Source: Bimuria novae-zelandiae CBS 107.79 (lineage: Eukaryota; Ascomycota; Dothideomycetes; Pleosporales; Didymosphaeriaceae). Taken from it: a DNA stretch of 64,000 nt. The stretch spans positions 136,885 through 200,884 of the forward strand of contig ML976733.1 of assembly GCA_010015655.1 (NCBI GenBank). Reading direction: 5' to 3'. Positions 15,679-62,278 of the stretch are shown one piece after another (position 1 is the stretch's first letter; each line of letters begins with the position of its first letter). Made by a program: the position numbers and the translations under genes. A model generated the notes under the pieces. It was given only the letters and a program-made list of their open reading frames with translations. It did not search any database and was not told where the DNA came from.

Positions 15679-16664
15679 GTTTAGCGAACGCATGCGGTCT
15701 AAGGCGCTCAAGTGAATGACGGCAGCTGCGTTGTGTGTGCTACTTTGAGATAGGCGGGCGCGGATCTAGGTAAAGGCAGGAGCAGGCGCTGAAGTTCAAG
15801 AGACGCAGCGTTACTATGAAGTGGCGTGGACCAGGAGGCCAAAGCGAGGGCGTTGACGCTGATTTCGGTTGACTGTTGCACTAGGCAACCTCGAAAACTC
15901 TACGAGGGGAGTCTTTTAGTATTGGCTTTCGCTGGCTCGCAAACCCCAAGCTCTTGTCAAAGCTAGAAATTCCCACAAACCAACAAATGCTTGCGGCTCT
16001 GTTCTAGATCCAGCTGGTATCAATACACCCTGCCTCTTTCGTGTAGCTGAAGGACAGCTACAAGGACAAGAGTTGATTGCAAGATGAACCTTGATATCTT
16101 TTGCAACGTCTCCAAGCCAGTACAAAACGCAGGAATTGTCGATGACGCAAAGCTTTGAAAGAGCTGATTGATAGCGAGATAAATACAGTGTGTTACTCCG
16201 GGATAAGGAATACAGCAGGCAAACATCTGCTGTTTACTTAGTGCTGCATAGGTGGGAGCTCAAAGCGAGAGCCTGCAGATACGCTGACGCCGGCGAGCGC
16301 GCCTCACCAGCTGTGAGGAAGATGTTGCATCCCGCATCACTAGTGACCGTTGCAGCAGATCGAGGACAGGCAGGCAGTGACAGAGTATGATATATCAGCA
16401 GATGCAAAGCGGATGTAAACGACAGACATATATTACATTCTAGCAGCACACCCGTGCGTCTACCCTTCTAGAAAGAACAAAACGACTGCCTCTCCGGTAC
16501 GCCCCCACCCAAAAAGAACAATAAGAAATACTATGACCGTTGTCTAGTCTATGATGGATAGAGGGAATATAGATTAAGGAATTACATTGATGATGCGAGC
16601 GAGCCTGTATCGTATCGGCTCGCTAAGACGTGTGTTGGTAGGGATGTAGTGCGAAGAGCTGTGT
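15679..16664. other. Intergenic region upstream of the Cys-rich gene and downstream of the ABC transporter
   Basis: No ORF with recognisable similarity. Contents should be the promoter of the minus-strand Cys-rich gene (15679 upward) and the 3' UTR of the ABC transporter gene (below 16665). No repeats were seen. Confidence 0.4.
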
Positions 16665-21192: not shown

Positions 21193-22195
21193 GATGTACG
21201 CTGAACGTAGGGATGCAAAGTCTTGAGATGCTTCAATAAGACAGAAGGAATAGCGACAATTAAAGGAGCGAAATTTCTAGGTAAGATGTCATCGTAAGCC
21301 AAGGGAAATTCCACCCGGCTTAGTTGTGGGTCTTCCCGTGCGAGGTGTAATAATCTAGCCCTGGATTCAGATACGATATTTTCAAACGGGCAGCCCCCTC
21401 GTACCTCCGTACGGGGTCCTCCATGTCGTTTCGTACAAGTTGGGTGGAGACCAGACTGTTAGCACACGCTATGGGTCGCAAGTGTGGACCACTAGGGGGA
21501 AAGTCCCTCCGTTTCGGAGCCACGGAGTGCCAAGATCTCCGATCCGGGCTCCTCGCTCCTCGCTCTTTCTGGCTTCGGCAGTGCGATGTATCCACCTCAC
21601 ACTTCCTGTCGGATCGACGGAGATTGTGAGCGCCGTACACGTTTAAAAGAGGTCCTGAAGTTGGATAACATCCGTCCTTACCCGCGTACGCATACGCGTT
21701 GCGGTGGTGGCCGGATGTGCTCGCTCTCTGAAACGCCCGAATTCCATGTCCTCATAATTAGACCGACCGATGCGATCCAGGTTTGAAGTCGACATGCACG
21801 CTATAACGCAGCGCAGTTATGCGTATTCTAGACAGTAATCAAGAGATTCGCTTAGCCAACGTTTATCAACAGTGGCACTCCATGTCGTGTAGAGTTTCGA
21901 AGAGGGAAAGGCTCTGCGAATAATATGTGTGCAGATAATTTCGTTCGTCAGATTCGCAAAGGAAGCTGTCTATCGCGCAATTACAAAACCATTGATGTTG
22001 CGACTTCTGCAATCGATGCAGCAGCAGGCGAAGTTTCAATGTGGGAGGAAGAATGAAGGTGTTTCGAGGGCCGTGGGGAACAGTTTGTAAGGCTCTGCGT
22101 GTTCACGCTCCTCCCACGCCGCTTGATCCGTTACGGTTAGCGCTGGCTTGTAGAGCACGTGAACGCGGGGAAATGGAGCAGTTGCCTGCCAAGGC
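21193..22195. other. Divergent intergenic promoter region (ABC transporter / F-box gene)
   Basis: One kilobase separates the start codons of the ABC transporter (minus) and the F-box gene (plus). Frames present (e.g. 21320-21640) have no similarity. The palindromic core CCGTACGG around 21408 could be a zinc-cluster factor site. That is a guess. Confidence 0.4.
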
Positions 22196-25366: not shown

Positions 25367-26118
25367 TTTACGGCCCGTAATTGGTTTTGGGCCGTACGTA
25401 CCGTAGTGAGGTGCCCACCGTACTAGGCACTATACTATACTAACTTTTAACCCGTAATACAGCTGTACAGAACCTTTTCTAAATTATTTAAAAATAGTAA
25501 GTAATTATAGAGTTATATAGCTTTAAAATTACTAGTTTTTTTTATTTAATTAGTAAAAAGCGGTGCATCACGCGCACGGACATAGTAGTAGGTAAAAGTA
25601 GGTCAAACGCGATATCTTATTATCTATAAGATTGTATCGGCGCTGGTCACTCAAAGAATCTGTTTAGGCGTTTCTACTCAGAGGCATATGGGAGTGCGTG
25701 GACAAGAATGTAACCAAGAATGCATTAAGTGCCAATAGGCCTAGTATAAAAGAATACTAAAAAGGTACTAAACTACATATAACAAATAAGGAAACTATAT
25801 ACCTAAGTACTTAGTAAATATTATCCTAGAGAGCTAAATACTAAAGAGTAAAAAAGTTATTTAATAAACTAAGGGACTAGTCTAATAAGGAACCCTAGTA
25901 AAGGGATATGTAATAGGTCTAATAAGGGTCTAATATAGAGTAGTTTTAGAAAAATAATCTTAAAGATTAAAGCTGATCTGAATTGGATCGGTGTCAGGGA
26001 AATAGGTTAATTCGTGTAACTTTGTAAGTTGGCAACTGGATGGCTGTGTTACAAAGATAGCTATAAATTACCTCTTTATACTAGTAACTTTATGCGACTA
26101 TAAGCGCTGTTTCTCCTA
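25367..26118. other. hAT-like element interior, AT-rich, with a TIR fragment of another family
   Basis: TA-rich sequence without open frames. At about 25569-25586 the string GCATCACGCGCACGGACA matches the right TIR of the 1486-3567 pogo element apart from one transition, but no partner end is nearby, so it is a fragment. The first ~70 bp contain inverted CCGTA/TACGG motifs typical of subterminal transposase-binding clusters. Confidence 0.45.
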
Positions 26119-26120
26119 TA

Positions 26121-27989
26121 ACGTACTTGACAAGCGAGCGGCCAGTACAAGCGAGCGGCCACCCCACCAAACTTTTCGTAACGCGTCACCTTGTAACAAT
26201 AATAGCTTAACTACCTCCTACTTAAATACTTTATAGTAAAGCAGATATCTTCCTAGCTATTTTAGCTATTAATTAAGACTAAATTTAAAGCGTATAACGC
26301 GCTATAGTAATATATAATATCTTTTAAAGTATATTACGTAGGTAACGTGTAGAAATTACTACGTAGTATAATTATTAGCCTAAATTAAAAAAGCTTACTA
26401 AGCTAAAAGAGGAGGTAATTATTAGGTATATACTTAATTTAGATTCTTAAGGATTTGCGCCTATCCTAAGTACTATATAAAATATAGTAAATAAACTACT
26501 CGCTAAGCGTAGCGCTAGCTAAATAGGCAAGAACTAGCTACGTAACTTTATTAAGTAAATAGATTACTTTACTATATAATTTAATTAGCTATATAATTAG
26601 TAAAGGGCTCTATATAAGAATTTTAAAGCTATTAAGGCTTAGTTTAAGCTTATATTACACACAAAGGCTACCTATAGTATTTATAATAAAAATACTTATA
26701 ACTTTAATAAGACTAGTTTTATAATAGGTAAGATATTAGCATAGCTTATTATTATAAGCTTAAAAAGATAAGGTAGACTAAAGGCTATCTAGCTAAGTAA
26801 TTATAAGTAGACTATATTAATCTATAGAATTAACGCTACTAACTAGGTAATTTTACCTTTTATTATTTTCCCTAGCTAGTATTACCTCTCTATCTAGTAC
26901 TAGGATAATAATAGTACTAGGATAATAATATACTACGCGACTAGGCTTTTGCTATAAGTAATAATAGCTAGACTACTAATAAGCTTAGAGTAAAGTAGCT
27001 AAGGCACTTTATTAAGTATATAATAAAGCGTAGGATAGGTGCACGCTAGCTACTTATACTTAATAGTTATAAGAGCTATAACTTACTTAAATTTTAAAAG
27101 CTTTATAAGGAGAATAATATTATTACTCTTTATATACTACTATATTTATTATACCTTTTATAACTACTTAATATTAATTACTTTTTGCTGTTAAAGCGCG
27201 CGTATAGCTACTAAATTAAGAGCCTAATACGTAACTATATTAGCTATATTATAAAGCTAAAGTTCTTACTAGCCTTTTATATAGCCTATATATAATTAAT
27301 TATAAAGGAGAATATCTGCGTAAGCTTTTAAGGCGCTAGCCTAGTCCTATATAACCTAAAGGTAGTAATATTAAAGCTTAATATTAAGCTTTATACGCTA
27401 ACGCTACCTTTATTAAAAGTTACTTTTTAAAAAGCTAAAATACTAAGTAACACACATAAGCTAGAGGCTTAGTTAATATTAATTTATAATAGAATTTAAA
27501 GGTATAAAAGTTTATGACTTACTTTTATTATTATAGCGCTTAATTAGCTTAAAAAGGGCGCTAAGGTAATAGCTTATAAAAGTACGCTTATACGTAATTA
27601 AATTATAAAGCTTAAATAGGTAAATAGGGCAGCTATAATACGTAAAAAGTAATAAAAAAAAGTAGATATAAGAATAAGGCACTTTAATAAAAGTAAAGGT
27701 AAAAAATATTATTACTTAAAAAATTTTAAGTAGTAGCTAAAGAGTAAAACGCGTCAAGGTAAGGCGTAATTAAGTACTAGTTAGTAGGCTTTAACGCGCT
27801 ATAGCTACTATAGAGAGACTAGGTATAATACGCAAACGTATATAAAGCGTAGTATAGATACTACTTAATTTAGTATAATAATTATATATAATTATTATAT
27901 CGCGTTGTTAAGTTAGATCGCGATAAAGGCAATAAAAGGTTAGTAGGGTGGCTGCTCGCTTGTACTGGCCGCTCGCTTGTTAAGTACGT
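26121..27989 (+). mobile_element. Fot1/pogo-type transposon (1869 bp), RIP-degraded
   Basis: TIRs of about 50 bp begin ACGTACTTGACAAGCGAGCG and contain the motif CAAGCGAGCGGCC twice. The right end is the near-perfect inverse (27940-27989), and TA flanks both ends (26119-26120, 27990-27991). The size is typical of Fot1-like elements. The plus-strand frame still shows family landmarks through the mutations: GKN-LRNFIKR, YNFNKTSFIIGKI (first catalytic block, Asp now Asn) and LLILNSYKSY (second block). Stops are frequent and nearly all G/C pairs in the core are lost. Bases 1-510 are a second copy of the same family in inverse orientation. Confidence 0.88.
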
Positions 27990-28164
27990 TACTAAACGTA
28001 TAATTATGTATAATTATAATTTATTAGCCCTAAAACTATTAAGGTCTACTAACTATAAAAAACTAGCTAAAAAATGGCACTATACCTAGCTACCTTAAAA
28101 AGTTAACCTTTTATATAAATAATTAAAAGAAAGACGCTAACGCAGTTAATAATAATAATAATAA

Positions 28165-28416
28165 TGTCTGCACTGTCTCGCCTTTCGCGCCACGGGAAAT
28201 GTGTAACCCAATCATACCCCTGTACCTCCCCACTTCCACATAACCTGATACTGTACCAAAACCCCCTCGCCTCCACACAACCTAATACTGTCTCATATCC
28301 ACGAGAACTGGAAGGGAGGTATATAGAGCTATCGAAGCACACACAAAGAAAAAGATAGACACTAGATACCAAAAGCAAAGAGATACTTGTTTTTCCTTGC
28401 TACCTGTGAACCGACA
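28165..28416. repeat. Solo LTR (252 bp), not RIP-altered
   Basis: The sequence begins TGTCTGCACTG and ends GAACCGACA (TG...CA), flanked by the 5-bp duplication AATAA (28160-28164 and 28417-28421). It has normal base composition within a strongly AT-rich block and a TATA-like GGTATATAGAGC at about 28317, as an LTR promoter would. No internal retroelement sequence is attached, so it is the product of LTR-LTR recombination. A (TAA)n microsatellite abuts its left edge. Confidence 0.75.
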
Positions 28417-30016
28417 AATAATATTTTAGAATTTTGAATTTTTTTAAAAGATAACGTTAATACGGCTTCCTTTCTAATTAAGGAATTTCTATATACTGCG
28501 AGCTATATGGACCCCTAAAATAAACTATATAATAATTGTGGCGCACAGTTACAACGATTAGGGAGCTCGAAAATAAAGTCTATTAAGGAGAAAAAGCTCT
28601 ATAATAACTAGCTATTTATAAATTTAGGGGATCGCGTGCTTAGCTACTTAGCTACTTAGCTTAACTTTAACTAGTATAGAAAGCTTTAGTAAAGTATCTT
28701 TTATAATACACCCCCTAGTTTATAAAGCGTAGTAAAATAAGCTAAATAATAACTTAAAGTATAAAAGGTAATAAACTTACGCGTAGAGCTTAAAAAGCGT
28801 CTAGCTTAGATTTCTAGCTTACTAGGTAATTAGTCTAAGTAGCTAGTTTATATATAGTTTAAAAAAAAAGTAAAGAAGTAAAAAGAGTAGCGTACTTCTA
28901 CTATAAAGCTTTAATAAATATTTAAAGGTAATTATTTACTTACAACGTGACCTGTGCGAGTACTTATATAAATAAATAAAAGAATAAGTAGCTATAGAAT
29001 TATAACGCTTAGCTAGTAAAGGCTTACTTACTTATAAACTTACTATAATTTATACTTTAATATTCCCTAAAAAGACTAGAGGAGGGTTTACTACTTATTT
29101 TTTATATTTAAGCTTAGTTAATAATACCTTTTACTAATTTTTTTAAATTTAGTTTTTAATTTTACTAATCTCTTTACTTATAAACTTATTATAAAGCTTA
29201 TAAAATGCTTCTCCCTAGAGTGCGTACTAAAGGCGGTTACACTTTATAGGCTTCTATTAATACTAGCTATTTACTCTATATAGGCACTTATAGCTTGTAT
29301 TAGGAGTGCGCCCTCTAAGCGTAGCGTATATGCCTGCGTGCTTAGTTGTTTAGTCGAGCTGCGCGAGCCAGCGAGCGTATCCTTCTAGAGATAGAGTTGC
29401 TACTGCGCCTAGTCGCGATAGGTTATTAAGCTCTCTCTAAGCCTACTTATAGTTATATCGTAGTGCTAAGCGTAGGAAATCCTTTATTAGCAGCGTACCC
29501 TTTATCTTTAGGAAATCTAGGAGCACAGCGTTGGCGTGTGCGCGGTTCTATTTAGATAGCTATTTAGTTATGTCTGTTGTTCTGCTGCTCTGTGGGCGTA
29601 GGGTGACCTCTTTATATATATGTTGTACCTGCTCCTTCTAATTATTATTACTTAAATAGAAATTATTTTTAAGTTCTCTAATTAGCGCCTATAGTATTTA
29701 CTACTTAATTAATTAATAGTATTATAAGCTTTAGCCTTTATAAATTAACTATAATATAGACCTAGTTTTAGAGTGCCTAAAGCTTTATTATAAGCTAATT
29801 ATAAATAGTAGACTCTAACTTATAGTACTTAAGCTATTATATATAAAACTTACCCCTAATAGTTATATTTAGTAGCTTTAAAGCCTAGTTATGTATATTT
29901 ATCTACTTAGGAGCTTTAAGGTTAATATAACTTTATATTTTTTAAATTTTTATATAGTACTTAAGCTATGCGTACTAAGGTAGGAATAAGTTATAATTTA
30001 TAAATTATTTACTTAC

Positions 30017-33000
30017 TGTAAGGGGCTGCGCAAAGGTTGCCGATGCCTGGTAACAGGATTGTATTTAATAAGGAGCAAACTATCTATAAGTAAGGCCAAA
30101 CTTATATGTGCGCTGTTATTGTTAAGAAGATTTAAGAGATTTCTAAGGCCCTACTTAGTCTAAAGGAGCACTAAGAGTTTCACTAAGGGTTTCACTAAGG
30201 AATAGTACAACAAGGTATCTAGCCTATTATATTACCCCCCTCCTCTCTTATAGCGTCTAGATAAAGGTCATTAGATCCACGCCAAAACCCTGTAGGAAGA
30301 AGTCGTGTATTAGGGTCTTAATATAGCTTTGTAAATTGCTCCTATCGAATCTTCGCTTTAGTATTTTGGAGGTTTTTAGCTAGCTCTATAGTTGGTAGGT
30401 AGTAGCCTTTCTATTTTACTTTATACCACCACTTCTATCCCCGTCCGCGTCGTTAGCACACTTCTGCTAATATATCTTCTACTTCCCACATATCTACGCT
30501 ATTAGTATCTACCTAAATTAGCAGTAGCTAGTCGTTGTCCTTTATTTAGCTTAGTAAGGGGTCTAATGCTGCTAGTCGGAGTTAGTTAACATAGAAAATA
30601 TTATAAAGGCCTAGAGGTGTATTTAGTCAAACTATGTGCGTATTTATTATTTTAATAACTGTGTACTTCGCGCTCCTCTAGTCTAGCTTCTTTAATTTTT
30701 GGCCTGTAGCAAACTGCTTGTCTAATTTTAGCTATACTTTGTCGCCGACGCGGAGGTGTGGCGCTTCTCGGCGATGCCTATTGGCTTAACGTTCCTGCTC
30801 TTGCTGTTCCTGTGCCATAGATGCTTGCGCAAGTTCTACAAGGTAGCGTAGTTTAGTGACAATAGACTCGGCTTTCTCGCGGTCAGACCTCTCATGTGTA
30901 GTGTACTTTCTGCGATTGGCGCCCGCAGGTATCTCTAGCTGTAGTGGGTTGATATTATACCCATGCTGAAGGAAGAAAGGAGACATCCTTGTCGTTATTA
31001 CGTCTTGTCCTTTAATTGCAATTTGTGCTAGCGGGCAGAGAGGTGCCCAGTCATTTTAAGCCCAGCTGACAAAGGCTTTCATATATGTCTCCCATGTGCT
31101 GTTCATGCGCTCTGTTACTCTATTAGTTTAAGCATGGAATGCTGTAGATAATTGCCGCTTAATCTAAAGAATCTCGCAGAGTCTTGTCTAGAACACGCTA
31201 ACAAATTAGCTGCCTCGATCTAACATAATTATATTAGGAATCTAATAGTAGGTAACAACATACGTGATAAACGCTTACACTACTGTCTCTATTTCTAGGT
31301 TTGCTAGCGGCACAAACACGACGTCTTTGCTTAGGCAGTTAGTAATAACTATAAGGTTTGTGTTGCCGTTGCTCTCTAGCAAGCCCTTAACAAAGTCCAT
31401 CGAGATCTCCTTCCAGATTTGTTCGGGCACTAGCAGGGGTTTCAAAAAGCCTTGCAGACCATCTCTCCACAGTTTTGTTCTTCCGCATGTATCGCAGTTC
31501 CGTGTATATCGTCAAATATCGTTAGACATTCCTGGCCAAAAGAAGTCTCTTCCAATTATCTTGTATATAATCTCTCTGCTAGGGTGCCTAGTAGCCACAG
31601 AACAGTGTATCTACTTAATAATAGACGTTCGTAGGGGTTCGTGGTTTGGTACCCATTTTCGTCCTTGGAAGTAGAGCACTTGGTCCTTAACCTTATATTC
31701 TGTAATTAAGCATTTAATTTAGAGTGTAATAGGGAATTTTTATTATCCGCTTTTTATAGCTTAGCGTGCTTCTTAATAAACTAGGTCTTTTTTAATTAAC
31801 TCGACTTAGAGGTTCTTAATAGTATCTTAATCTCGTGTGTCTTCTTAAGTATTTTCTTAAATTGCGGCGGGTAGAGCACGAACTTTTACAGACATTACTA
31901 TAATATCTATCTCTTTATTAGTGTTGTCCAATTCCTTATAGTACGATGTAGTAGGCTTTAAGACTTATACGAGTCTCCTCTATAGTTAGTTATTGCTAGT
32001 GTCTGCGGGTAGATCCTGCTCTCGCCGGGATAATGCGTCTGCTCGGATATTTTGCTTGCCTGGCCTATAGAGGATCTCCATATTATATCTGCCTAGGATA
32101 AGCGACCAGCGAACCTGTCTCTCGTTTAACATTCGCGGCTTTATAAAGTACTCTAAGTTCTTGTGGTTAGTAACCACCTTAAACTTTTCTACTAATTAAA
32201 GTTTAGTATCTTATTCTTTAAGTCCTCTAATAACTGCTAGTAGTTCTTTATTATAGATTTTATAGTTATATTTAGCAGGCGTGTTCTTTCTTAAGAAGTA
32301 GGCATAGGGACGTAGGATTCTATTCTTATTATATTAAGATAGTACTCTAGTAGTAATATAACTAGATAAGTTGTATTTTATAACTGTATCGCGGTCTGCT
32401 TGGAACTGGGCTAACACTAGTTTGGATATAAAGACTTTCTTAAGTGTATCGAAGGCCTTCTGTTCCTCTGCTGTCTATCTAAAGGTAACGTTACCTATAA
32501 GTCTTATAAGGGGAGCGGCAATTTAGCCAAAATTTTAGATAAATTATTAGTAAAAATTAGTAAAGCCTAGAAAGCTTCGTACGCCCTTAATAGTCTTTAG
32601 CGCCTCCTAATCCTTAATAGCTTTAACCTTTTCTAGGTCCATGCGTGTGCCCTTCCTAGCTTTAATAATAAAGCTAAGATACTTTATAATTTTGACCTTA
32701 AACTTGCACTTCTTAATATTAAGATATAACCTAGCTTCTTTTAGCTGTGTAAGCACTTTGTTAACTTGCTTACGATATTTCTAGAGAGAACCGTTTATAT
32801 AGATAAGGATATTGTTAAGATACGCTATGCAGAAATTGTCTAAATATTCGCGGAGTATCTAGTTAATATACCGTTAGAATGTGCTAGGGGCATTCGCTAG
32901 TCTAAATAGTGTAATAAGCTATTTAAATAATCTAAAACGTGTTTAGAAAGCTATAAGCCACTTGTCCCCTTCTTGGATTTAGATCTTGTAGAAGGCTATA

Positions 33001-35718
33001 ATAACGTCTAGTTTTATAAACTACCTTGCCTTTGCAATATTGTTTAAAGTCTCGTAAATAAGTAGTAGAGGATACTAGTCCTTTTTTATTAAGGCGTTTA
33101 GTGTTTTATAGTTAATACATAGTTGCAGTCCACCTCCTGGCTTCTTTATAAATAGGATTAGTAACGTAGCAGGTGAATTGCTTGCTTGTATAAAATCTTT
33201 GTTAAGCAGAGATGTAAGTTCCTTCCGTAGCACTAGAAGCTCTCCCTTTAACATGTTATATAAAGGTCCCTAAGGGGCTTCGGGCTTCTTCCCTTCCTTC
33301 TCTTCTAGCTTAATTACGTGGTTAATTCTAGGTTAATGCGGCGGCAATTTACTTACTTCCTTAGGATTAAAGAGCGTTATATGCTTCCTCTAGTGCTTAG
33401 GAACTAGAGACAGGACGTCGATCTTTGGCTTAGGCGCTAAGGCCTTGTTAATGTTTACTAGTAAGGCGGCGAATATTTTTATGGCTCTCCCTAGATTCTT
33501 GTTTTTGCTCTAAGCTATTTTTATTAATCGCTAGAATTCTATGGCGCTAACCTCTTAAATCTCTAGTAGGTGGGCCTTACCTTCTTAACTACGGATTCTA
33601 ATACCTAGAGCGCGCAGGTATATTAACTTCTTTATAGGAGTAATAGTAACTTGGTTCTAATTTATTTATGGACGTCCTAGGATAATGTCCTCTTTAGCAT
33701 TGTTTGGCGTGAAATACGCAAATCCATTCTTAGTGTAGCTATTTATATTAAACGTAAACTTTATAACTTTGTTAACCTAGCTAACTTAATTATTTACCCC
33801 TATAATAGGCTTTTGTGGAATCGCTATGCGCTCAAGTTTGGCTCGTCTTATAAAGGAACAGGTTATAAGGGCGTAAGAGAGGTATCTAGAGTTAATTAGT
33901 GCTAAGGTGTAATTAGTTTAATTAACTAGTATATGTACTGTGAGCGGGGGTGCTAGCATGTTTTTCTTTTTAAACTTATCCTATTCTATCCTTGTATTCT
34001 TGCTTACTCGTGAAGGCTCCTGATCGCGACTTCGACTAGGAGCTACTCTTTTTCTAACTTATTATTATCTACTACTATCGCGTTATTATTATCTTTTACT
34101 TTTAATTTAGTTTTCGCTTTCGCGGCTTAAGTTAGCTATTACTTAAGATTCTAAGCAGCTTTTAGAGTGTAAGACTTAATTTAGTGGCCTTTCTTTTTAT
34201 ATTATAAATATAATCTATTATCGCGTTGTTAATTAATCTCCTTTTAAGGGACCTATTTCGCTTATTGCATCTGTGTTCTACTTAGTTCCTAGTTTATAAA
34301 ATTAGTAGAAATATTACTTAAGGTAGTATTCTATAGTAGTGCGTCTCTCTTCTTGCTGCTTAGCTTTAACCGCTATAGATTGTCTAATATAGTAGTAATG
34401 TGTAATTGTATCTCCTTAATTATAGTGCTCTTAGGAAAGATAGTGCCTGCGAGGGTAGTTTATAACTCGTGATTAAGAGCGTGTAGGAACATGCTCTTTA
34501 AGATAGTATAGTTAAATAGGCTAGCTATTAGAGCTTCCTTATTAAAGTCCTAAATAAAGTCGCGTACGTTGTGTGTTTTCTATTACATATTCTAAAGCTT
34601 GCTCCTTATAGTCTTAGCCATGTGCGCGTCCTTAAACGCTCTATTAAGATGCTAAAAGAACTAATTAAGCGTGCTAGTTATGGCGTAAATAGATACCTAT
34701 AGGAAGATACGTGCTCTAGCATTGCCTGTTATACAACTAAAAGTGTAGTCGATCGCGAGTTAGTCTATATAGAACTATTAAGTCTTAGACCTTAGCTTTG
34801 CTTTAATCTAGTATTTCTATAGTAAATACTGGCTTCGAGTTCTATTAAATGCCTTAGGGTCCTTAAGTCCTTTTGGTTCGTACGCTGCCACAGGTGTCGC
34901 AGGTGTTGTAGGTGCTATAGGTGTCGCGGGTGTTGTACTAGCAGTAGTCGCAGTAGGTGCTAGGATATTAGTACTTTTAATTCTTGCTATTCGCGCTATA
35001 AGTTTACCTATCTACACTATTATTTACTGTATTATCGCTTTAATACTTAAGTTTAGTAGTGTTAGTATTATTTGCTAAGATTGTCCTTTATTATCTTATT
35101 AAGCGTTTAAAACTTTATAGTAAGTGCTAGTCTCTATCTTACTACGTTCGTCGTAGTGCTTAGGCAGGCGTTTAACTGTTAAAGGTCCCTGCACTGGCGT
35201 TGCTTGTTATTATAGTGCTTAGGCAGGCGTTTAACTGTTAAAGGTCCTTATACTAGCGTCGCTTATTATAGTGCTTGGGCAGGCGTTTAACTATTAAAAG
35301 TCCCTGCACTAGCGTTACTTATTATAGTAGTGCTTACTGCTTAGAAGCAGGTCTTGCAAGTCGTTCTATTAAGGTAGCTAGGGATTAACTATATAGCTTA
35401 GTTTATTACTACTTACTGCTTGGAAGCAGGTCTTGTAATTAGTCTATTAGTAGAGTACTAGGGGACGGCTACACTAGCTACTTAAGGGTAATTAAATATA
35501 AAATATAAGGGGCTGCGCAAAGGTTGCTAATACCTAGTAATAAGATTATATTTAATAAGGAGCAAACTATTTATAAGTAAGGCTAAACTTATATGTGCGC
35601 TGTTATTGTTAAGAAGATTCAAGAGATTTCTAAGGCCCCACTTAGTCTAAAGGAGCACTGAGAGTTTCACCGAGGGTTTCACCAAGGAACAGTACAACAA
35701 GGCATCTAGCCTATTACA
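30017..35718 (-). mobile_element. Ty3/gypsy LTR retrotransposon (5702 bp), RIP-degraded, nested
   Basis: LTRs of 215 bp at 30017-30231 and 35504-35718 (TGTAAGGGGCTGCGC...) are flanked by CTTAC on both sides (30012-30016, 35719-35723). A run ACCCCCCTCCTCTCTTA next to the left LTR is the polypurine tract read on the minus strand. Minus-strand fragments in gypsy order are gag (about 35400-34100), protease and RT (about 33800-32300, with the YxDD box changed to YLNN), RNase H (31986-32177, [20 protein letters not shown] and DALSRREQD) and integrase (about 31800-30500, including an intact 66-codon piece at 30786-30986). Stops throughout make it dead. It sits inside the LTR element at 28537-36062. 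Confidence 0.9.
35154..35330 (-). repeat. Tandem repeat (56-59 bp x 3) in the gypsy gag region
   Basis: The unit begins TAGTGCTTAGGCAGGCGTTT and recurs at 35154, 35213 and 35269 with few differences. A second local repeat (TTACTGCTTGGAAGCAGGTC) occurs at about 35334 and 35410. These lie in the N-terminal gag part of the gypsy element, where short repeats of this kind are not unusual. Confidence 0.8.
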
Positions 35719-49866: not shown

Positions 49867-51308
49867 ACGTATTCCACATGCGAGCTGCGCACCCTGGCGA
49901 GCTGCGCGCTTTTGCCAAGCCCATACTAACTTACAATTAACATATAATAGCTTAATAAAATAATAGTTAATCTACTTCGCAAGAAGTAAATATATAGCTT
50001 ATTTTATAATTTATTTTTAATAATTAAATTTATTTAGTCTAATGCGGTGCTGCTACGTATAATATACCTAAGTTTACGCTATATAATAAATGCTCTAGTA
50101 TCCTTTTATATACTAAAATATAATTAAACTTAATAAAACTTATAAAATTAAAGGAGGAGATAATTATCTAGTATATCTTAAATTTTACTAAGTAAGGATA
50201 CCTTATAATTCTTATATAAGTTTAAAATATAATAAAAACTTTACTTACTACATGTACCTAAGGCTAAGTTAATAAAAACTAATTATTAAGCTTTATTAAG
50301 CGTATATTTAAGCTTATAATAAGGTTTAATTATAAGTTAAACTGCTTACGAATACTATATAAGGATCCTACTATTATATTAAACTAGTTTTAATATATAT
50401 AAAATATAAAGGCAAAGTACAGTATACAGGATAAGAATATATAAAATTTTAATAAGCTAGAAGGTTATTACTACCTTTAAAAAGTATACAAGGCTAAAAT
50501 GAGTATAAAAAGGTAATAAAGAGTAAATATTAATAATACTGTCCGTACGCAGTACGGGCAGCTACCTAATGCGATGTCTTAAGACAGGTGACAATGGTTA
50601 TGTAATACCGCACAGGCAAAGGCACAGACCATAGTCACCGTGCGCGAGCATCAATCCTTATAACCCCCTTTCCTCCGTACGTAGAATAGACAGACAAGAC
50701 TTGAATACCAGACCCTTTTCTCACCCGTACCATCGTACAACTATCTAGCCCTATCATATCGCGATATGCTTGGCTTAGTATAGCCCATTCAACAAATACT
50801 AAATATTAGTAGCGCGAGATAAAAGATCCTACTTTTTATTATTTTTTAAGTAAAAATATATCTTGCTAGCTAGCATACTAAGGATAATTTACCTTCCGAA
50901 TAAAAATTATAGTCTTTAAAAATAGCTAAATAATAAAGAAGCTTAAAGTTATGTAAATTAAGTACTTTAACGTGTATATAAAGCGCTATATATAGGGTAT
51001 ATATAGGCTACTTATTATGAATAGCTACGAGAGCTATAGCTTTATTACTTTTAAGTATTATTATAAAAATAATAAAATTATTTATTTTTAATACTGCTAC
51101 ACTTATCGTATATCCTATAGCTACTAAATATAAGTTATTTTTTTTACTACTAAAGAAGGCATACTTGCGCTAAGTTAAGTAGTTAATATAAAATTATATT
51201 AATTATATTATTAAAACTAAGTTTTTACCTACGTTTAATAACTCGTTTAACGCGTTAATTAATAAAAAATACATTAAAAAACTTTTATAGCGCTAGATTA
51301 GTGCCTTT
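49867..51308 (+). mobile_element. Third pogo/Fot1-type relic, 3'-truncated, RIP-degraded
   Basis: After TA at 49865-49866 the element starts ACGTATTCCACATGCGAGCT, with the subterminal motif GCGAGCTGCGC twice, an organisation parallel to the 26121-27989 family but with different sequence. The plus-strand frame still shows transposase landmarks: KLKEEIII, FNYKLNCLRILYKDPT and YSIQDKNIYNFN before a break at about 50465. Later, after the solo LTR, comes text aligning to the C-terminal catalytic half. No right TIR is found; host-like sequence resumes at about 51309. A segment just upstream of the LTR seems to be missing. Confidence 0.7.
50540..50794. repeat. Solo LTR (255 bp) inside the pogo relic, not RIP-altered
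   Basis: The sequence starts TGTCCGTACGCAGTACGGGC and ends CCCATTCAACA, flanked by AATAC on both sides (50535-50539, 50795-50799). It has normal base composition in a TA-rich host element, so it arrived after most RIP damage or was too short to be a target. It shows no obvious similarity to the solo LTR at 28165-28416, so two LTR families have been recently mobile. Confidence 0.78.
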
Positions 51309-51459
51309 TTTGTCAGGAGCATTCCCAACCAGGCCCTAAGAAAGCCCCTTTGGAGATTCCCTGAATCGTCTTCGGGTTACCTCTGGACCGACCCTGGGCC
51401 AGGTCACATGATGGAGTATATATATGCTTCTATATCTCCTTACCGCATGTCCGTTTCCT

Positions 51460-52062
51460 TTGGCCGTTTTTAGACCCCAAGTTCAACCGGACATGATTTC
51501 GTCCTTTGTAATTTTTTCGTCCCACCAAAACCACATAGCTGCTTTAGCTTTGCGGTTTTTGGACACCTCGTCCAGCAGTACATGCACTTGCTCTATGATG
51601 TATTTTTAGACCCCCAGAGGCGCAACACATAGGTCGACACGTGACCAGTTTTTAGTCGACCGCCCCAGCGCCGTTCTGTGAAGACGAGGAAATTGTCCAG
51701 GAGGTTGGGTGTTTATATCCATGTCACCTGATCGAAAGAGGACGGGATGGTGCTTCCATTGATGGTGAAGTTCCCCATCATCAACCTTGAGAGCAAATAC
51801 ATTTGGAAACCTGCATGCGTGCTTCACGCTCGTGGATTCAGAAAGGCCAGGCTCGGCTAACATGTAGCCGTGTGTTAGAAGGTTTTAGAGACAACGACGA
51901 GGCACGCATGGCATTCTGCGAGTCCTGTTTTAGTGCGGCAATTCTACGCAGGATTGTGTAGGAGGAAAGAGTCTTGAGGATACAGTGGGGTTTATATAGG
52001 TTTTTGCGGGGGACGGGCAGGATTTTGGTATTTGGCTGAGTGGTGGTGCGCGTCATCACGGT
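51460..52062 (-). repeat. Two minus-strand copies of the dyad-TATA-TCTAAAA unit
   Basis: Read on the minus strand, unit 1 has the dyad site at 52043-52061 (GTGATGACGCGCACCAC), TATA at about 51988-51998 (TATATAAACCCC), a CACTAAAAC box at about 51928-51936 and CTCTAAAACC at about 51881-51889. Unit 2 has the dyad at 51761-51785, GGATATAAAC at 51711-51720, a GACTAAAAA box at about 51648-51657, GGTCTAAAAA at about 51602-51611 and TCCAAAAACC at about 51553-51562. A further GGTCTAAAAA lies at about 51467-51476. Spacings (about 41-45, about 60, about 45, about 45) equal those of the plus-strand array at 55.7-61.5 kb. No coding frame is conserved. Confidence 0.75.
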
Positions 52063-55652: not shown

Positions 55653-58388
55653 ATATCCGCGGTATATGAAGATTGTACGCAGTGCGTCAGTGTGAGAGAA
55701 AGAGGAGGTAGTGCAGTCAGATGTAAATAGATATAACTTACTATCAACGATGTATGTGCTTGCGCTCGTACGTCTAGAAAATCTCCCTCGTGCGTTCCAT
55801 ATGCTTCTACGGGCGTGTCTAAAATCCGCTTCAACCCCTCTCTCCCTGAGCTGGGATCGGAGCGAGCGAGTGGTCGTGTATGCTGGTGCGGCTCCATTCA
55901 CAATGGCGACGTGATTGGGTATGTGCGTGTTGGTTGGCCTGCTTTCCGTCCTAAAACCACAAAGAAGGCTCCAATAAATTCCTCCACCCTTCTCTCAAAC
56001 ACCGAAGCACAAGATCGATGTGATGCCCTGGGCGTGTCTAAATCTGCCCCTGTACCTACACATGTGGGACTCGCGCTTCCGTGACTTAAAAGCCGCACGC
56101 TGGAAAACGAGGATAGAGGAAGTTTCTCTAGGAGGGGTTGGAAAATATCAACCTTGGCCTGCATGGGTTGGTGCCGCTTTGTTGAAAGTAGTGGGGTGAA
56201 TTCGATGTGTACGTGTGGCGTGCTGTTGGGACTAAAAACTGCACAGAGGAGGGTTACGTGTTTCTCCAGCTTAGATGGAAACATATGGGAATACGAGTGA
56301 TGGGCTGGGCTGCTCGCGGTGGGGAGAAAGCTATATTAAGAGACCTGCTAAGGTGCTTCGCGCGTGTCTAAGGTTTGACGCGCCGTGGTGATGTTCCTCA
56401 CTATCGTTCGAATTACCCCATCCTTTCTTCTTGGGGAAAGGTATATAAACCTCTCTCTGCCGCGTTGGAGTCTTCCTTCTCACACTACTCCTCCGAGCCT
56501 TGCTCACTAAAATTGTACGAAGAATGTTTCGATGGGCTGCTTTTGCGCTCTAAAAGTACCCAGACCTGCTCTCGATATGATGTGGACTTTCTGCCGCGTC
56601 CTCTATAACTTCGTCAAACATTCAAGGAAGAAGACATTGGCTGCCTTTAGGGTCTAAAATGCACTGCGCACTTCTCGCATGTTGTGCGGATTTTCTGCGG
56701 CGTCTTATGAATGAAATATTGCAGATGTTTCGATTGTATAGTGTACGGGGCTTTTGTTGATGATGCGAACCATCACTGTTTAATCGTGGTTGTGGGGTGT
56801 GAGTTAAGACGGGCGGCGGGTATATAATCCCGCTCTTCCGCGACGAAGTCTTCTCCTCACACTACTCTCGAGTCGTTCTCTAAAATAATGGACTCTGCTC
56901 CTTCGTGGGCTGCTTCTGGACTCTAAAAGATGCGCAGCAATACTCTATTGTGATGTGAACTTTCCGCCGCGGCTCATGAGCATGAAGAATCACCTTGGTC
57001 GTAGGATTTACTAAGTTTTTTGTTTGTGATGGTGCGCATCATCACTGTCTATATAGGTGGGTTTTCAGGTGTAAGTTAAGACGGTTGGCCTGTATATGAA
57101 TCCTCCTCCTCCACATCCAAAACTTCTTCCACACTACCCGGCTGAGCTCGTTCTCTAAAATGACCCGACAGAGGAATACATGGACTGCTTCCCGGCTCTA
57201 AGATCCCATGCCGCCACCTCCATGTGCTGTGCAATTCGCCACTAAAAAGTCTATCTCATGAAGAATATGGACCTTCGCTGTGTCGAGATTAAGCCTTCTT
57301 CAGACTAGTCCCCTGCGCCCTGCTCTCTAAAGGCAACCAGAAACTCGGCATGTGGACTGTTTCTAGGGTCTAAAAGTCCCTGCGGCTCCGCCTGATAGGG
57401 AGCGGCCCTGGCTTCGCTTCTAAAATGTTCATGCGATGAGGTGCATGAGCTCCTCGCCGTGCTTTGGGGAAACGGCTTTGAGCGTAGGCGTCTTGAGACT
57501 TTTGATGATGCGCGCCATCATTGGCTGCTCGAATCGGCGTTTCGGTCTCCTTCGAGATGGTAGGCGTGCATTTAAGCCCTTAAATTCTCTGCAAGAAATT
57601 TTTCTTCTCACACTACTCCGCTAAAACATTTTGTCTAAAATAAAGCCCACCAAGATGCCATGGGACTGTCTAAAAATCGCTCTACATGGGCTGATGTGGA
57701 TCCAAAACAAGATACTTGCACGTCATGGACTGCTGCAGTTTGTGGGGTTTCCGGGGATGGTTATATCTCGATAGCTGTTCGGTGGTGCGCCCCATCACTA
57801 CAAGTACTTCCTTAAGCGGTTTATCGCGCCTCTGTCAAGATAATCAACGGGCATATAAGCCCCTTAAATCCCAGCGAGAGACTATTCTTCTCACGCTGTT
57901 CCGCAGGGGCATTTTGTCTAAAAACCAGCGTTCTTTAAGAAAATGGGACTGTATAAAACTCATCGTACACGCCTTGATGGGCGTCCAAAACCACAATGGC
58001 ATACTTGAATTGGGGGTGCGGGATCTGGTTTGGCTCTGTGGATCGTTATCTTGAGGTAGCGGGATAGCGGGATACATATGTAGTGGGTTTGATGATGATG
58101 CGCACCGTCAACGCTAAAGGAGTACCTTATCTCTGTTCAGCTGGGTAGCGTGTATATAAACCCACACTTCTGTTCGGAGACATTCCTCCTCGCATCTCTC
58201 CCCTAAGGCACCTATATTTTCTCTTAAAACAGGCGACCAGAGTCGTTATGAGATTCTCTAAAACAAGGAAGACACGAATTCATATGGCTGTGATTCTGGG
58301 TCTAAAAACATGGACCTTAAATTTTATGAAGTACTGGACGTCGTGTGGCACTAGAAGACCCTTGCGTCTTGATGACGGTGCAGAGCTT

Positions 58389-58620
58389 GATGATGATTAA
58401 GCTCACTACTATCTAGGTGAGTTGAGCCCATTTCGGCTGACTGGCGTGTATATAAACCGCCATTCTGAATGGAGTTTCTTCACACACTACTTTTCTAAAA
58501 CGATTTGACTAAAAAAACATAAGACACCTGACCATGTGAGATTATCTAAAAAAACTCAAACCGACCTCATGGGTTGTGCCCGCGGGTCTAAAAACGAGTA
58601 TCTGAGGTCGCTATGGACGC
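58389..58620 (+). repeat. Representative array unit (58.4 kb)
   Basis: A weak dyad (TGATGATGATTAAGCTCAC, 58388-58406) is followed by TATA at 58447-58457 (GTATATAAACC), CACACACTACTTT at 58481-58493, TCTAAAA at 58494, GACTAAAAAAA at 58506, TCTAAAAAAA at 58544 and GGTCTAAAAA at 58586. The last box is preceded by ATGGGTTGTGCCCGCG, the semi-conserved stretch found before most boxes. Confidence 0.7.
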
Positions 58621-58675
58621 GGGCCTTCGTGTGACTGTGGGGGACGTGCATGTCCCAATAGCGATGCAGTGTTTA

Positions 58676-58693
58676 ATGGTGATACTCACCATT
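58676..58693. promoter_or_regulatory. Variant dyad site with both arms changed together
   Basis: ATGGTGATACTCACCATT: in this unit and the next (58971-58988, ATGGTGATACTCACCACT) the core GCGC is replaced by a different centre while the arms remain mutually complementary (GGTGA/TCACC). Retained two-fold symmetry despite sequence change suggests binding by a dimeric regulator or a selected hairpin. Confidence 0.55.
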
Positions 58694-60664
58694 ACACCGG
58701 GTGAGATGAGTCCGCTCTGGCTGGCTGACGTGTATATAAACCGACGATCCCTTGCAGAACCTTTCCCTTTACGCCACTCTGCTAAGGCCTTCACTAAAAA
58801 GCACGCAAATAGTAAACGCAAAGCGTGATGGGGTTGTCTAAAAACATAACGAGAATAAGATCCATGAGATGCGCTCTTGGGGCTGAAAGCTAGCATCTTA
58901 TCTCTTCATGGGTGCTGGACTTTCTGTGGCTCTAGGAGTGTCTATTTCTCGACGGCCACGCAGTGCATAATGGTGATACTCACCACTACTGTCTAGCTGA
59001 GTTGAGTCCGTTCCGGTTAGATAGCGCGTATTTAAATCCGTAAATCTTCTATAAACATAGTTCCTCACGCTACCCCACTCCTACTCTCTTCTCTAAAAGA
59101 CAGGAAGCGCCATTGTATGAGCACCTTTCGAGATTGGGTCATCGATACTGAATGGGCTGCGCCCGCGGGTCTAAAAGCATATTGGACCACTCTTATGGGC
59201 CGCTGGGTTTGGCGTGTGCAAAGGAATTATTTTGTGCTTGGATAGCATTGTGTTATAGCTGGCGATGCGCATCATCCTCGAATACGTGAATTGGAACCTG
59301 TTTGGGCCACGGGCGTGTATATAAACTCTACGCTTTGCTGGATTGAATTTCTTTCACACTGCTTCTCTGTAATGCCTCCAAAAACATGCCGAGCTGGTGA
59401 TCATAGGCACCTTGAAAAATTGGATCATCAACACACAATGAGCTCTGCCCGTGGCTCTAAAATTTGTTGGAACCCGTTGAAATGGGCCGCTGGACTTATT
59501 TTGCGCCTGAGAAGATCTCCTTTCACGTCTGGACAAGGTTGTATGGTATCTAGGTTTGGTGGCGATACGCATCACCGCCAGCCGTGAGAACTTGCTACTC
59601 TTGGGAGGGCTAGTGTATATAAACCCCTCACTCCACCGCGAATATTGTTTTCTTTGTACACAGTTCTGCACTGCGGTGGTGCACTAAAAGGCAACTATGG
59701 TGATGATAATAGGTGTCTCGAGCAGGGGGGATGTCTAAAATCCTGGGACCAATACGAGATGAGCTGTTGGGAGGTGTTTTAAAAAATGGAATACGCTGAA
59801 TTATGTGCTGCTCGTGGCCTTTGGTTTGCCTGAGCTACAAACTTCGCAGCTACGTGTTGGTATTGGGGGATGGAAAGGTCGCTTGGGTGCGTTTGTTGAT
59901 GATGCGCGTCACCGTTAGCTATGTTTTGAGTGAACTCATTACCCTTGGGACGGCCGGCATGTCATATAAACCATCCGCTTTTTTGTGATAGATTCTTTCA
60001 TTCTAAACGGTACAGCACTTCGGTGATCACTAATGATCACTAAAACTCGACCCAATTGCGACCCATGTGTGGTTCCTGGGTCCGAGGTCTAAAATGCCAG
60101 TGTCACATCCACTATGTGGATCGCCGGGGCGGGCCCAATTACCCCATCCCCAACACGCGCGCGTGCCCGTGTCAAATATGCGACGTGTCGCCTTGGGAGT
60201 GTCTAAAAAGGTTTGAAGACTCACTATGGACTGCCCGGCCCGGTTCGCCTAGGCTCATAAATCATGTCGCGCTCTGCCATGCGTTGTTTGTCAGAGTTTT
60301 ATAGTAGGGTCTTTTAAGCGCTAAATTGATGATGCGCGTCACTGTCAGTCGTGTGAAATCATTTCCTTTGAGACGGTCGGCGTGTATATAAACCTCCTCA
60401 CTCTACTGCGACAGAGACTTCCTCTCCACACAGAATTACACCAGGAGGAGGTGCACCAAAAAGTCCAAACCCTGGCAAGCATGCGTGCTTCCTGGGATTT
60501 AAAAAAAAGGTGCGGAGCCTTGCAATGTGCTGCTCCAGCCTCGTATCGTCGGAAAATGAAGATGGAAATTGGCTATGGACTGTCCGTCCTGGTTTTTTGA
60601 AAGCACTGTTCGGCAGACTCATGTTGTGCTTTGTCTATTATGGCAAGATCCTCCAAACACCTTT

Positions 60665-60895
60665 GGTGAATATGCGCATCGCCATCAGCTGTGTAAGTCG
60701 AGCTCACTTCAGCCGGACGGCGTATATAAACCCTCCCTCTACTGTGACAAACTTTTCGCCACACACTTCTGCACCGTGGTGCATTAAAAAGTTCACCTCT
60801 AGAGCTCTATGTGTGGCCCGTGGAGTCTAAAACACACGAATCGTCACGAAATGTGCTTCTCCGGGATTGTCTAAAATACGTGCCTCAAGGTTTAT
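60665..60895 (+). repeat. Representative array unit with regular 43-nt box spacing
   Basis: Dyad GGTGAATATGCGCATCGCC (60665-60683), TATA at 60721-60731, CACACTTCTGCACCGTGGTG, then ATTAAAAAG at about 60783, TCTAAAA at about 60825 and TCTAAAA at about 60870. The stretch before each later box starts ATGTG (ATGTGTGGCCCGTGGAG and ATGTGCTTCTCCGGGATTG). The next unit (about 60896-61090) repeats the same two stretches at the same spacing, with unrelated 18-19-nt segments in front. Confidence 0.75.
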
Positions 60896-60982
60896 ATGCC
60901 GTTGGGACTGGTGGGCGTGAATAAAAACTCCTCCCTCTACAGTAATAAACTCTTCCCTACACACTTCTGCACAGCGGCGGTG

Positions 60983-61076
60983 CACTAAAACAAGAGCACC
61001 AGCGGTTTCATGTGTGGCCCGTGGAGTCTAAAAGAATCGGTGCATGAATGCATGTGTTTCTTTGGGATTGTCTAAA
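60983..61076 (+). repeat. Sister module of the 60.7-kb unit (weak TATA)
   Basis: CACTAAAAC at about 60983, TCTAAAA at about 61026 and 61070. The two 66-nt segments from ATGTGTGGCCCG through the final TCTAA in this unit and the previous one have identical length and identical conserved parts but different variable parts. Both can be read as 21-codon ORFs (MCGPWSLK... to FGIV stop). The ORF is not kept in other units, so coding is doubtful. Confidence 0.6.
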
Positions 61077-61458
61077 AACCCATGCATCAAGATTCATGAG
61101 CTGGTGGGACTGGCAGACGCAGACAAAATCTCCTTTAGCCATGTGCCGCGATTTGAGCATCTACAGGAAGGTCCAACAAGCACTTCGGTGAAGATGCATA
61201 TCACCATCGTTAAATAGAACGAGGTTTCCAAGTCTGTGTTAGCTTGGAAGCGGTGTATACAAATCTCTTGCTCTGCTGGGAGCGACTTAACTCTGCATGA
61301 TACTGCACTGTGGTGATGCACTAAAACAGAACGACCACGCGTTGATGTGGCTTGTGGTGTCTAAAACTTGTTGAGCACCAGCCAATGTGCTGCTTCGCAG
61401 GCATTAAAAGATGAAGGAGGAGAACGCTATGTGCTTCTTCTGGGAGATGTCGTAAACT

Positions 61459-62278
61459 TTAACCGCGTCATCGTGACTAGGACGTGTTGTTTATGTCGTG
61501 GTTGACTCACTGTTCTCCTAAGTTAATCTGATTTTGTCGCGTTAGGAGATGCGAACTATAGATAATAACCTTAACACTAGAAAGTCTAACAAATAATTGA
61601 TTACTAGATATACTGTTTTTATAATTAACCTTCTTGCACTGCGAACGCGCTCTAGGCAGCATCCTAACAGCCTTTTAGACCTCCTATCTTGTGTTGCTCA
61701 TGCTGTCCATGGGCACCAAACCCCAAACAACAAAATCATTTGGACACTTCTTCACATCTTCGCATTTTTGACAACAACTGCCTTTTCAGGCTGCGCTGCG
61801 CAATTGGTTCGACGAACTGCGGAGAACGAAATGACTTAGGGCAGTTTGGATTACACTGCACCCCAGACCCTTGTTACAAAACGTATTGCTTTTGAATTAC
61901 AGTTCTTCCCTGCACACCTTCCCTCCCGAAAGCTATAAACAAACTAGTTATACACGCACTATCGGTTACAATCCCCCCAAAGGGTCGACAAGAAAACCCC
62001 CGTGAGACGCTGATAGCGCCGCCGAAGCTTGCCGCTACGCCATGCAATGCAGGAAAGGTGGAAACAAAAACAGTCGCTCGTGAACATGCTCAAAGAACCC
62101 CCCCCCCCCCCCCGGGTTTGGTGTACGAGTATCTCTCGCAAACCATAACCATGTCGATATGATAGCTTTTCAGTTTTCGGTGGCGAGATCTAGGGTAAAC
62201 GTGTCGATGCTTTCAGCCTCCCCGTTACCCATGACAAGGTCTTATACCTGTCTTGTGGCACTGTAGATCCAGGTTACC
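61459..62278. other. Intergenic region with a 15-bp poly-C tract
   Basis: After the last array module the sequence becomes ordinary. A run of 15 C (62099-62113) followed by GGG stands out. Frames at 61597-61895 have no ATG-initiated similarity. The 3' UTR of the Seb1-like gene should lie below 62279. Confidence 0.5.

What the first reader, a model, noticed from the sequence alone, without database searches (positions are those of the whole stretch)
55740..61458. Undescribed promoter-like tandem array with fixed internal geometry
About 15-16 head-to-tail units share a dyad site, a near-invariant TATA box, a CACACTACTC segment and regularly spaced TCTAAAA boxes, while sequence between these landmarks has diverged. 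Conservation confined to regulatory-looking motifs is not expected from decaying satellite or transposon DNA; it suggests selection on transcription of short units. I see no conserved ORF, TIR, LTR or target duplication. A possible reading (inference): a cluster of co-regulated short Pol II transcripts. Alternatives are a transcription-factor sink or a decayed family of short genes.
Basis: partly seen in the sequence, partly recalled or inferred. Interest (0 to 1): 0.92.

Follow-up and report, generated by a model that had tools for sequence, protein, structure and literature searches.

The report
Fungal repeat-spacer RNA gene arrays
A fungal genome carries many arrays of small, look-alike genes, each with its own promoter, whose presumed non-coding RNA is a chain of short modules with fixed marker words around an 18-19-letter stretch that differs from module to module; I found no description of such a family.

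Summary
The array is real and belongs to a family spread through the genome of what is probably a Pleosporales fungus. A profile of the start region finds 16 promoter units at 56.4-61.4 kb (+) and two on the minus strand at 51.6-52.0 kb; no hit up to E=1 lies outside these two arrays. The unit is a TATA box, an Inr-like CACACT, a short hairpin whose arms co-vary between genes (17 of 50 against 6.7 expected), then CTAAAA. After it come ~46-nt modules: CTAAAA, 18-19 free bases, ATG, an A-poor linker, the next CTAAAA. This pattern occurs 271 times genome-wide against 9 for the reversed pattern. Linkers resemble each other within an array; the 18-19-nt segments do not. Modules weaken away from the promoter; no reading frame is kept. 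Best reading: Pol II-type non-coding RNA genes with a repeat-spacer transcript. That the variable segment is a guide is inference; the two segments searched genome-wide have no match beyond chance. No expression data or related genome was available. Rfam (window only) and nine paper searches gave no match.

The parts
56340..61440 (+). Main array: promoter units in tandem
51443..52060 (-). Second array of two promoter units, followed downstream by an AT-rich block
55740..56340 (+). CTAAAA-like boxes without a recognisable promoter unit, possibly decayed modules
   Evidence: no profile hit
56439..56541 (+). unit 1 start region: TATA, Inr, leader, box 1, spacer, ATG
   Evidence: E 5.2e-15 (in training set)
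56817..56890 (+). unit 2 start region
   Evidence: E 3.3e-7 (not in training set)
57090..57188 (+). unit 3 start region
   Evidence: E 5.5e-10 (in training set)
57284..57470 (+). unit 4: boxes present, TATA degenerate
   Evidence: no start-region hit
57565..57666 (+). unit 5 start region
   Evidence: E 2.6e-11 (not in training set)
57849..57947 (+). unit 6 start region
   Evidence: E 3.2e-7 (not in training set)
58149..58256 (+). unit 7 start region
   Evidence: E 2.9e-5 (not in training set)
58445..58540 (+). unit 8 start region
   Evidence: E 3.7e-12 (in training set)
58729..58809 (+). unit 9 start region
   Evidence: E 1.3e-6 (not in training set)
59025..59125 (+). unit 10 start region
   Evidence: E 1.1e-8 (in training set)
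59314..59403 (+). unit 11 start region
   Evidence: E 2.3e-6 (not in training set)
59612..59700 (+). unit 12 start region
   Evidence: E 7.1e-13 (not in training set)
59964..60074 (+). unit 13 start region
   Evidence: E 1.1e-5 (not in training set)
60381..60489 (+). unit 14 start region
   Evidence: E 1.2e-12 (in training set)
60720..60817 (+). unit 15 start region; hairpin TGCAC-CGTG-GTGCA before box 1
   Evidence: E 1.5e-12 (in training set)
60916..61018 (+). unit 16 start region; linker 1 identical to unit 15, spacer 1 not alike
   Evidence: E 1.1e-13 (in training set)
61252..61352 (+). unit 17 start region
   Evidence: E 2.1e-10 (in training set)
60985..61077 (+). Two complete modules of unit 16: CTAAAA, 19 nt, ATG, linker, CTAAAA, 18 nt, ATG, linker, CTAAAA
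51901..52000 (-). minus array, unit A start region
   Evidence: E 1.1e-10 (in training set)
51622..51718 (-). minus array, unit B start region
   Evidence: E 9.3e-7 (not in training set)

Best explanation
This is a genome-wide family of non-coding RNA genes in tandem arrays. Shown by sequence: each gene has a TATA box, an Inr-like CACACT and, in some, a shared dyad upstream. In the 20-30 nt after the Inr lies a short hairpin that abuts the first CTAAAA. From there the transcribed strand is a series of ~46-nt modules: CTAAAA, 18-19 nt of free sequence, ATG, an A-poor linker of about 8-26 nt that is array-specific, and the next CTAAAA. Inferred: RNA polymerase II makes one RNA per promoter, a protein or RNP recognises the leader hairpin, CUAAAA and AUG as fixed marks, and the 18-19-nt segment held between the marks is read by base pairing, so that each array supplies a set of different guides, the promoter-near modules being the working ones.
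For: Module pattern 271 hits against 9 reversed. ATG at +18/+19 accounts for 74 occurrences in 105 segments that were not selected on ATG. 204 modules: the variable segment is balanced (A 28.5%), the linker A-poor (A 11%, T 29%), a strand-specific bias. Linkers alike within arrays (mean identity 0.528 within, 0.455 between, 0.461 shuffled; 29 of 300 pairs >=0.7 against 1.0 shuffled), variable segments not (0.460 and 0.460; p=0.74). Leader hairpin co-varies: 17 of 50 own arms against 6.7+-2.1 permuted, 0 of 2000 reach it. Next-box frequency falls 0.80, 0.56, 0.38, 0.24 from the promoter, background 0.06. Held-out start regions: 9 of the 18 window hits at E<=2.9e-5 were not in the training set; in 20 loci there are 62 hits at E<0.001 (34 genes of these loci were in the training set), all on one strand per locus. 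Not coding.
Against: No RNA data. Guide reading: two segments have no near-full-length match elsewhere in the genome beyond chance, the 204 do not exceed shuffled controls in 262 kb, and no TnpB/Fanzor-type zinc ribbon (PF07282) was found in this genome (a six-frame search without introns, whose control rang only in prokaryotes, so weak). Internal linkers form no hairpin beyond chance (19 of 168 against 18.8), except that linkers ending in A show a small excess (3.49 against 3.22 bp, p=0.016, one of nine tests). RNAalifold finds no consensus pair on the MAFFT alignment of 43 start regions. Segments are no more accessible than shuffled ones. In linker-similar pairs the variable segments keep slight similarity (0.351 against 0.295), which fits fast drift as well as function. 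All from one genome.
Confidence: 0.4

Rival explanations
1. Same non-coding RNA genes, but the RNA is a multivalent scaffold or decoy: CUAAAA, AUG and linker are protein sites and the 18-19 nt is only a ruler of fixed length whose letters do not matter.
For: Fixed length with free sequence; no targets found for the segments; no accessibility signal; segments diverge as free sequence would.
Against: Does not explain why linkers are array-specific yet conserved inside an array, nor the closest gene pair (units 15 and 16: leader 0.80, linker 1.00, first segment 0.50 where unrelated segments give 0.467; one pair only).
Confidence: 0.3
2. DNA-level arrays: clustered binding sites that titrate a factor or organise chromatin, RNA being irrelevant.
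For: Fixed spacing and multi-locus arrays; dyad upstream of some genes.
Against: Strand-specific A depletion, single orientation within each locus, TATA and Inr in each start region, co-varying leader hairpin downstream of the presumed start.
Confidence: 0.12
3. Tandem processing or poly(A)-like signals: an A-rich hexamer, 18-19 nt, a (C/T)A cut site and a G/U-rich downstream stretch, repeated to cut nascent RNA into very short pieces.
For: Order and distances resemble a metazoan poly(A) signal (recalled); C or T before the ATG in 72% of 204 modules; G/T-rich linker.
Against: ATG is far more rigid in place than cut sites are, and fungal signals differ (both recalled); the leader hairpin and the free 18-19 nt are unexplained.
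Confidence: 0.08
4. Decayed short protein genes or a promoter-carrying satellite without function.
For: Many degenerate units; units 15 and 16 share a 21-codon frame (read by eye); frame 0 is longer than frame +1 (p=0.04).
Against: Module length mod 3 is 34/36/35 and frame 0 is no longer than frame +2; motif-focused conservation; co-varying hairpin.
Confidence: 0.1

Closest known systems
CRISPR arrays (bacteria, archaea)
   Same: Leader with promoter, regular modules, similar repeat part within an array, unlike spacers of fixed length, degeneration away from the leader (features of CRISPR recalled).
   Different: Eukaryotic TATA promoters, one per few modules; repeat part varies in length and is not palindromic beyond chance; 18-19 nt; no Cas family sought other than PF07282; spacer origin unknown.
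Clustered snoRNA genes with diverged guides (orphan snoRNAs)
   Same: Non-coding RNA clusters in which fixed boxes persist and guide stretches change between paralogues (recalled).
   Different: No Rfam match in the window (other loci not searched); boxes and spacing differ from C/D and H/ACA (recalled).
Kinetoplastid minicircle guide-RNA cassettes
   Same: Many different guides between conserved flanks (recalled).
   Different: Mitochondrial minicircles in protists; here contigs of a fungal genome with TATA promoters.
Putative human CRISPRs (PMC8993844; start of abstract seen only)
   Same: A claim of CRISPR-like arrays in a eukaryote.
   Different: The abstract reports 12,572 putative arrays across human chromosomes; here each unit has its own promoter and fixed internal geometry.

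Membership tests
CRISPR array | Spacers of uniform length, not alike within an array | tested here: met
   ATG at +18/+19 74 times in 105 segments not selected on ATG; 169 of 204 parsed modules have 18-19 nt, but 114 of the 204 had been selected at 17-20; within-array identity equals between-array
CRISPR array | Near-identical repeats of constant length in an array | tested here: not met
   Linker 7-26 nt, mean within-array identity 0.53
CRISPR array | Palindromic (hairpin) repeats, where present | tested here: not met
   Internal linkers 19 of 168 against 18.8 permuted
CRISPR array | cas genes nearby | not tested
   No search for Cas families was made; PF07282 not found
CRISPR array | Spacers derived from invading DNA or RNA | not testable with these tools
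   Two segments have no match in the own genome beyond chance; no fungal virus collection held
Known structured RNA family (snoRNA, snRNA, tRNA) | Match to an Rfam model or tRNA finder in the window | tested here: not met
   0 Rfam hits at gathering score; 0 tRNAs
Pol III gene | No TTTT inside the transcript | tested here: not met
   TTTT in 21 of 204 modules
Protein-coding gene family | Reading frame kept between copies | tested here: not met
   Module lengths mod 3 34/36/35
Pol II-type TATA promoter | TATA box ~35-40 nt before an Inr-like start | tested here: met
   Distances 35-40 nt for the closest matches in the window; alignment of 43 start regions and profile. The 50 genes were chosen for a TATA-like and an Inr-like word. 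Transcription itself not testable
Inactivated (RIP) repeat | High TpA/ApT, low CpA index | tested here: not met
   Array 0.81 and 1.23, AT-rich blocks 1.5-1.9 and 0.2-0.7

The most novel reading that the evidence does not exclude
A eukaryotic RNA-guided system with its own genomic repeat-spacer arrays: hundreds of distinct 18-19-nt guides, transcribed from dedicated promoters with a hairpin leader, renewed or diversified fastest in the modules near the promoter (seen by eye only, in one gene pair), acting against transcripts or invaders.
Probability: 0.12. Interest if true: 0.97.

Novelty: categorically new. Interest (0 to 1): 0.8.

Why it matters
Repeat-spacer arrays with free segments of fixed length are the mark of RNA-guided systems in prokaryotes. 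A promoter-driven, genome-wide counterpart in a fungus would be a new kind of RNA gene. Even if the free segment is only a ruler, a large unknown family of TATA-driven RNA genes that keeps geometry while losing sequence is a clean case for studying how such RNAs are made; neither Rfam nor the tandem-repeat finder showed it in this window.

Tried and rejected
Hairpin in every module: suggested by eye (for example the C107:163158-164000 linkers), rejected by shuffles and arm permutation for internal linkers, apart from a small unadjusted excess in linkers ending in A (p=0.016); it holds only for the leader. Pairing of variable segment with linker, of linker with leader, of linker with linker: no clear difference from other arrays (the nearest is segment with linker of another module in the same array, p=0.07). 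Local targets: none beyond shuffled. Wholesale replacement of segments: not claimed, since linker-similar pairs keep slight similarity and the first segments of units 16 and 17 are at 0.67. Coding: rejected. RIP-driven diversification: rejected by composition. Tandem Repeats Finder reports no row in either array. RNAalifold on the MAFFT alignment: no pairs. BLAST of 40 joined segments: uninformative, since it did not find even the segments' own places. PF07282: none. Papers: searches gave no description; only listings and starts of abstracts were seen, no paper was opened.
Full report
WHERE. The window is C78:136885-200884 of an unnamed 77.4-Mb assembly in 191 contigs. An F-box protein at 22.2-23.6 kb is 90% identical to a protein of Kalmusia sp. 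IMI 367209 and 89% to one of Paraphaeosphaeria minitans, so the host is most likely a Pleosporales fungus near Didymosphaeriaceae (family placement recalled). The main array begins about 0.7 kb after a CLPTM1-like ORF that ends at 55652 (name by my reading). AT-rich blocks in the window carry RIP-type dinucleotide indices; the array does not.

THE OBSERVATION. Landmarks and spacing were located by regular expression and by alignment of 17 hand-set units. Conservation is concentrated: standard deviation of column identity 0.213 against 0.135 in a uniform-decay simulation, maximum 0.159. A sequence-only profile (R1) was built from 43 of 50 start regions (34 from other loci, 9 from the window). 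It gives 18 hits at E<=2.9e-5 in the window, 16 in the main array and 2 on the minus strand at 51.6-52.0 kb; the further 16 hits up to E=1 (best 0.03) also lie in the two arrays and on their strands. Nine of the 18 were not in the training set. Tandem Repeats Finder has no row there.

A GENOME-WIDE FAMILY. Three CTAAAA boxes at 38-48-nt steps occur 55 times against 7 for the reversed pattern; some hits are AT-rich and look like transposon copies. Reading the rest showed CTAAAA, 18-19 nt, ATG, 8-26 nt, CTAAAA. That pattern (17-20 nt allowed before ATG) has 271 hits against 9 reversed; with ATGT 106 against 5, with ATGG 99 against 1. Some of the 271 are AT-rich repeats (for example a CACTAAGACCTGCG family), so 271 overstates exact modules somewhat; modules with a changed box are not counted at all. 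I analysed 204 modules from 82 array bins: 219 segments, namely 105 box-to-box segments (34-54 nt, GC above 0.38) from L022-L041 and the window plus 114 typed from printed rows; 15 of the 219 had no ATG at 15-22 nt and were dropped. L022-L041 were chosen from hits.

MODULE ANATOMY. In the 105 segments that were not chosen for ATG, ATG occurs 27 times at +18 and 47 times at +19 after CTAAAA, and at most 7 times at any other offset. In the 204 modules the segment between box and ATG is balanced (A 28.5, C 26.4, G 22.5, T 22.5%); the linker is A-poor (A 11.1, C 22.1, G 38.2, T 28.6%). Such a one-strand bias is more easily explained in RNA than in DNA (inference). Linkers are array-specific: identity 0.528 within against 0.455 between arrays; 29 of 300 within-array pairs reach 0.7 against 1.0 when each linker is shuffled. 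The variable segments are not array-specific (0.460 within and between; 0.448 when shuffled). In the closest gene pair, units 15 and 16, leader identity is 0.80 (between-array mean 0.537) and the first linker is identical, while the first variable segments are at 0.50 where unrelated ones give 0.467; over the 22 within-array pairs with leader >=0.6 the segments average 0.463 and the linkers 0.566. Results the other way: in 27 linker-similar pairs the ungapped identity of the segments is 0.351 against 0.295, and a few pairs are alignable (units 16 and 17: 0.67), so fast divergence fits better than wholesale replacement.

THE LEADER. The 50 genes were picked by a script that asks for a TATA-like word, an Inr-like word, a box at 50-90 nt and an ATG at 16-21 nt after it, not for pairing. 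Upstream of box 1 a short stem abuts the box: the best stem is 4.30 bp against 2.58 shuffled. When 5' arms are permuted among genes, a 5-bp stem with a loop of 3-5 at 0-1 nt from the box is found in 6.7+-2.1 of 50; the true arms give 17, reached in 0 of 2000 permutations, with loop 4 most common; with 4 bp it is 20 against 10.4+-2.5, permuted maximum 19; a looser form of the test gives p 0.003-0.046. Sequence differs while pairing is kept, which is the sign of a structured RNA (inference). RNAalifold on the MAFFT alignment finds nothing, perhaps because arms and loops are not in register there. Internal linkers show no such stem (19 of 168 against 18.8). A dyad of the form RTGRTR-N3-8-CAYCA lies 54-81 nt before the TATA in 10 of 50 genes; background 155 of 5705 stretches; an unspecific palindrome search shows little (best arm 4.64 against 4.37 shuffled).

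POLARITY AND STRAND. From box 1 on, the next box is found in 0.80, 0.56, 0.38 and 0.24 of 50 genes, background 0.06; further on it stays at 0.24-0.36 up to box 10, where following genes are reached, then 0.10-0.12. ATG at 17-20 nt falls 0.64, 0.56, 0.32 (the first value, 0.98, is set by selection). In 20 loci the 62 profile hits at E<0.001 (in 19 of the 20 loci) lie on one strand per locus; of 112 hits up to E=0.1 one weak partial hit is opposite (L026:2043-2092, E 0.0037). 34 genes of these loci were in the training set.

WHAT IT IS NOT. Not coding: module length mod 3 is 34/36/35, and the frame of the first ATG is not longer than frame +2, though longer than frame +1 (p=0.04). Not tRNA or a known RNA family in the window. 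Not Pol III: TTTT inside 21 of 204 modules. Not a RIP relic.

MECHANISM. Shown: promoter geometry, leader hairpin by co-variation, modular strand, array-specific linker, free segment of fixed length, polarity. Inferred: transcription by Pol II, recognition of hairpin, CUAAAA and AUG by a protein or RNP, reading of the free segment by base pairing. The last step has no direct support: two segments searched with up to 2 mismatches in the whole genome gave, apart from themselves, 2 and 0 hits, with 2 and 1 for the reversed control; 204 segments show no excess in 262 kb; PF07282 was not found. A ruler or scaffold is the main rival.

NOVELTY. Nine searches of the paper library returned no description; most subscription papers are not held. 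No fungal genome collection was on hand, so how old or how wide the family is cannot be said.

Noticed in passing
window 26000-30000, 31000-35000, 50000-51300, 1-1000: AT-rich blocks with RIP-type indices (TpA/ApT 1.5-1.9), compartmentalised against gene-rich DNA.
   Followed up: partly
window 35154-35336: About three copies of a 56-59-bp tandem repeat inside an AT-rich block.
   Followed up: no
window 1774-2454: ORF that reads like a DDE transposase piece (by eye).
   Followed up: no
window 11166-12218: Open frame with a short ketoacyl-synthase-like stretch that runs into unrelated sequence, like a polyketide synthase remnant (by eye).
   Followed up: no
window 16582-21276 (-): PDR-type ABC transporter gene, apparently in several exons (by eye).
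   Followed up: no
G000:C67:132161-132400: An array in which two linker types alternate (short TCGCTGGTGGA and long TCTCGC...AGT) with unlike variable segments.
   Followed up: partly
G000:C78:227392-239935 (-): Further modules on the same contig as the window, outside it, on the minus strand.
   Followed up: no
window 62098-62113: Run of 16 C, possibly an assembly-sensitive homopolymer.
   Followed up: no
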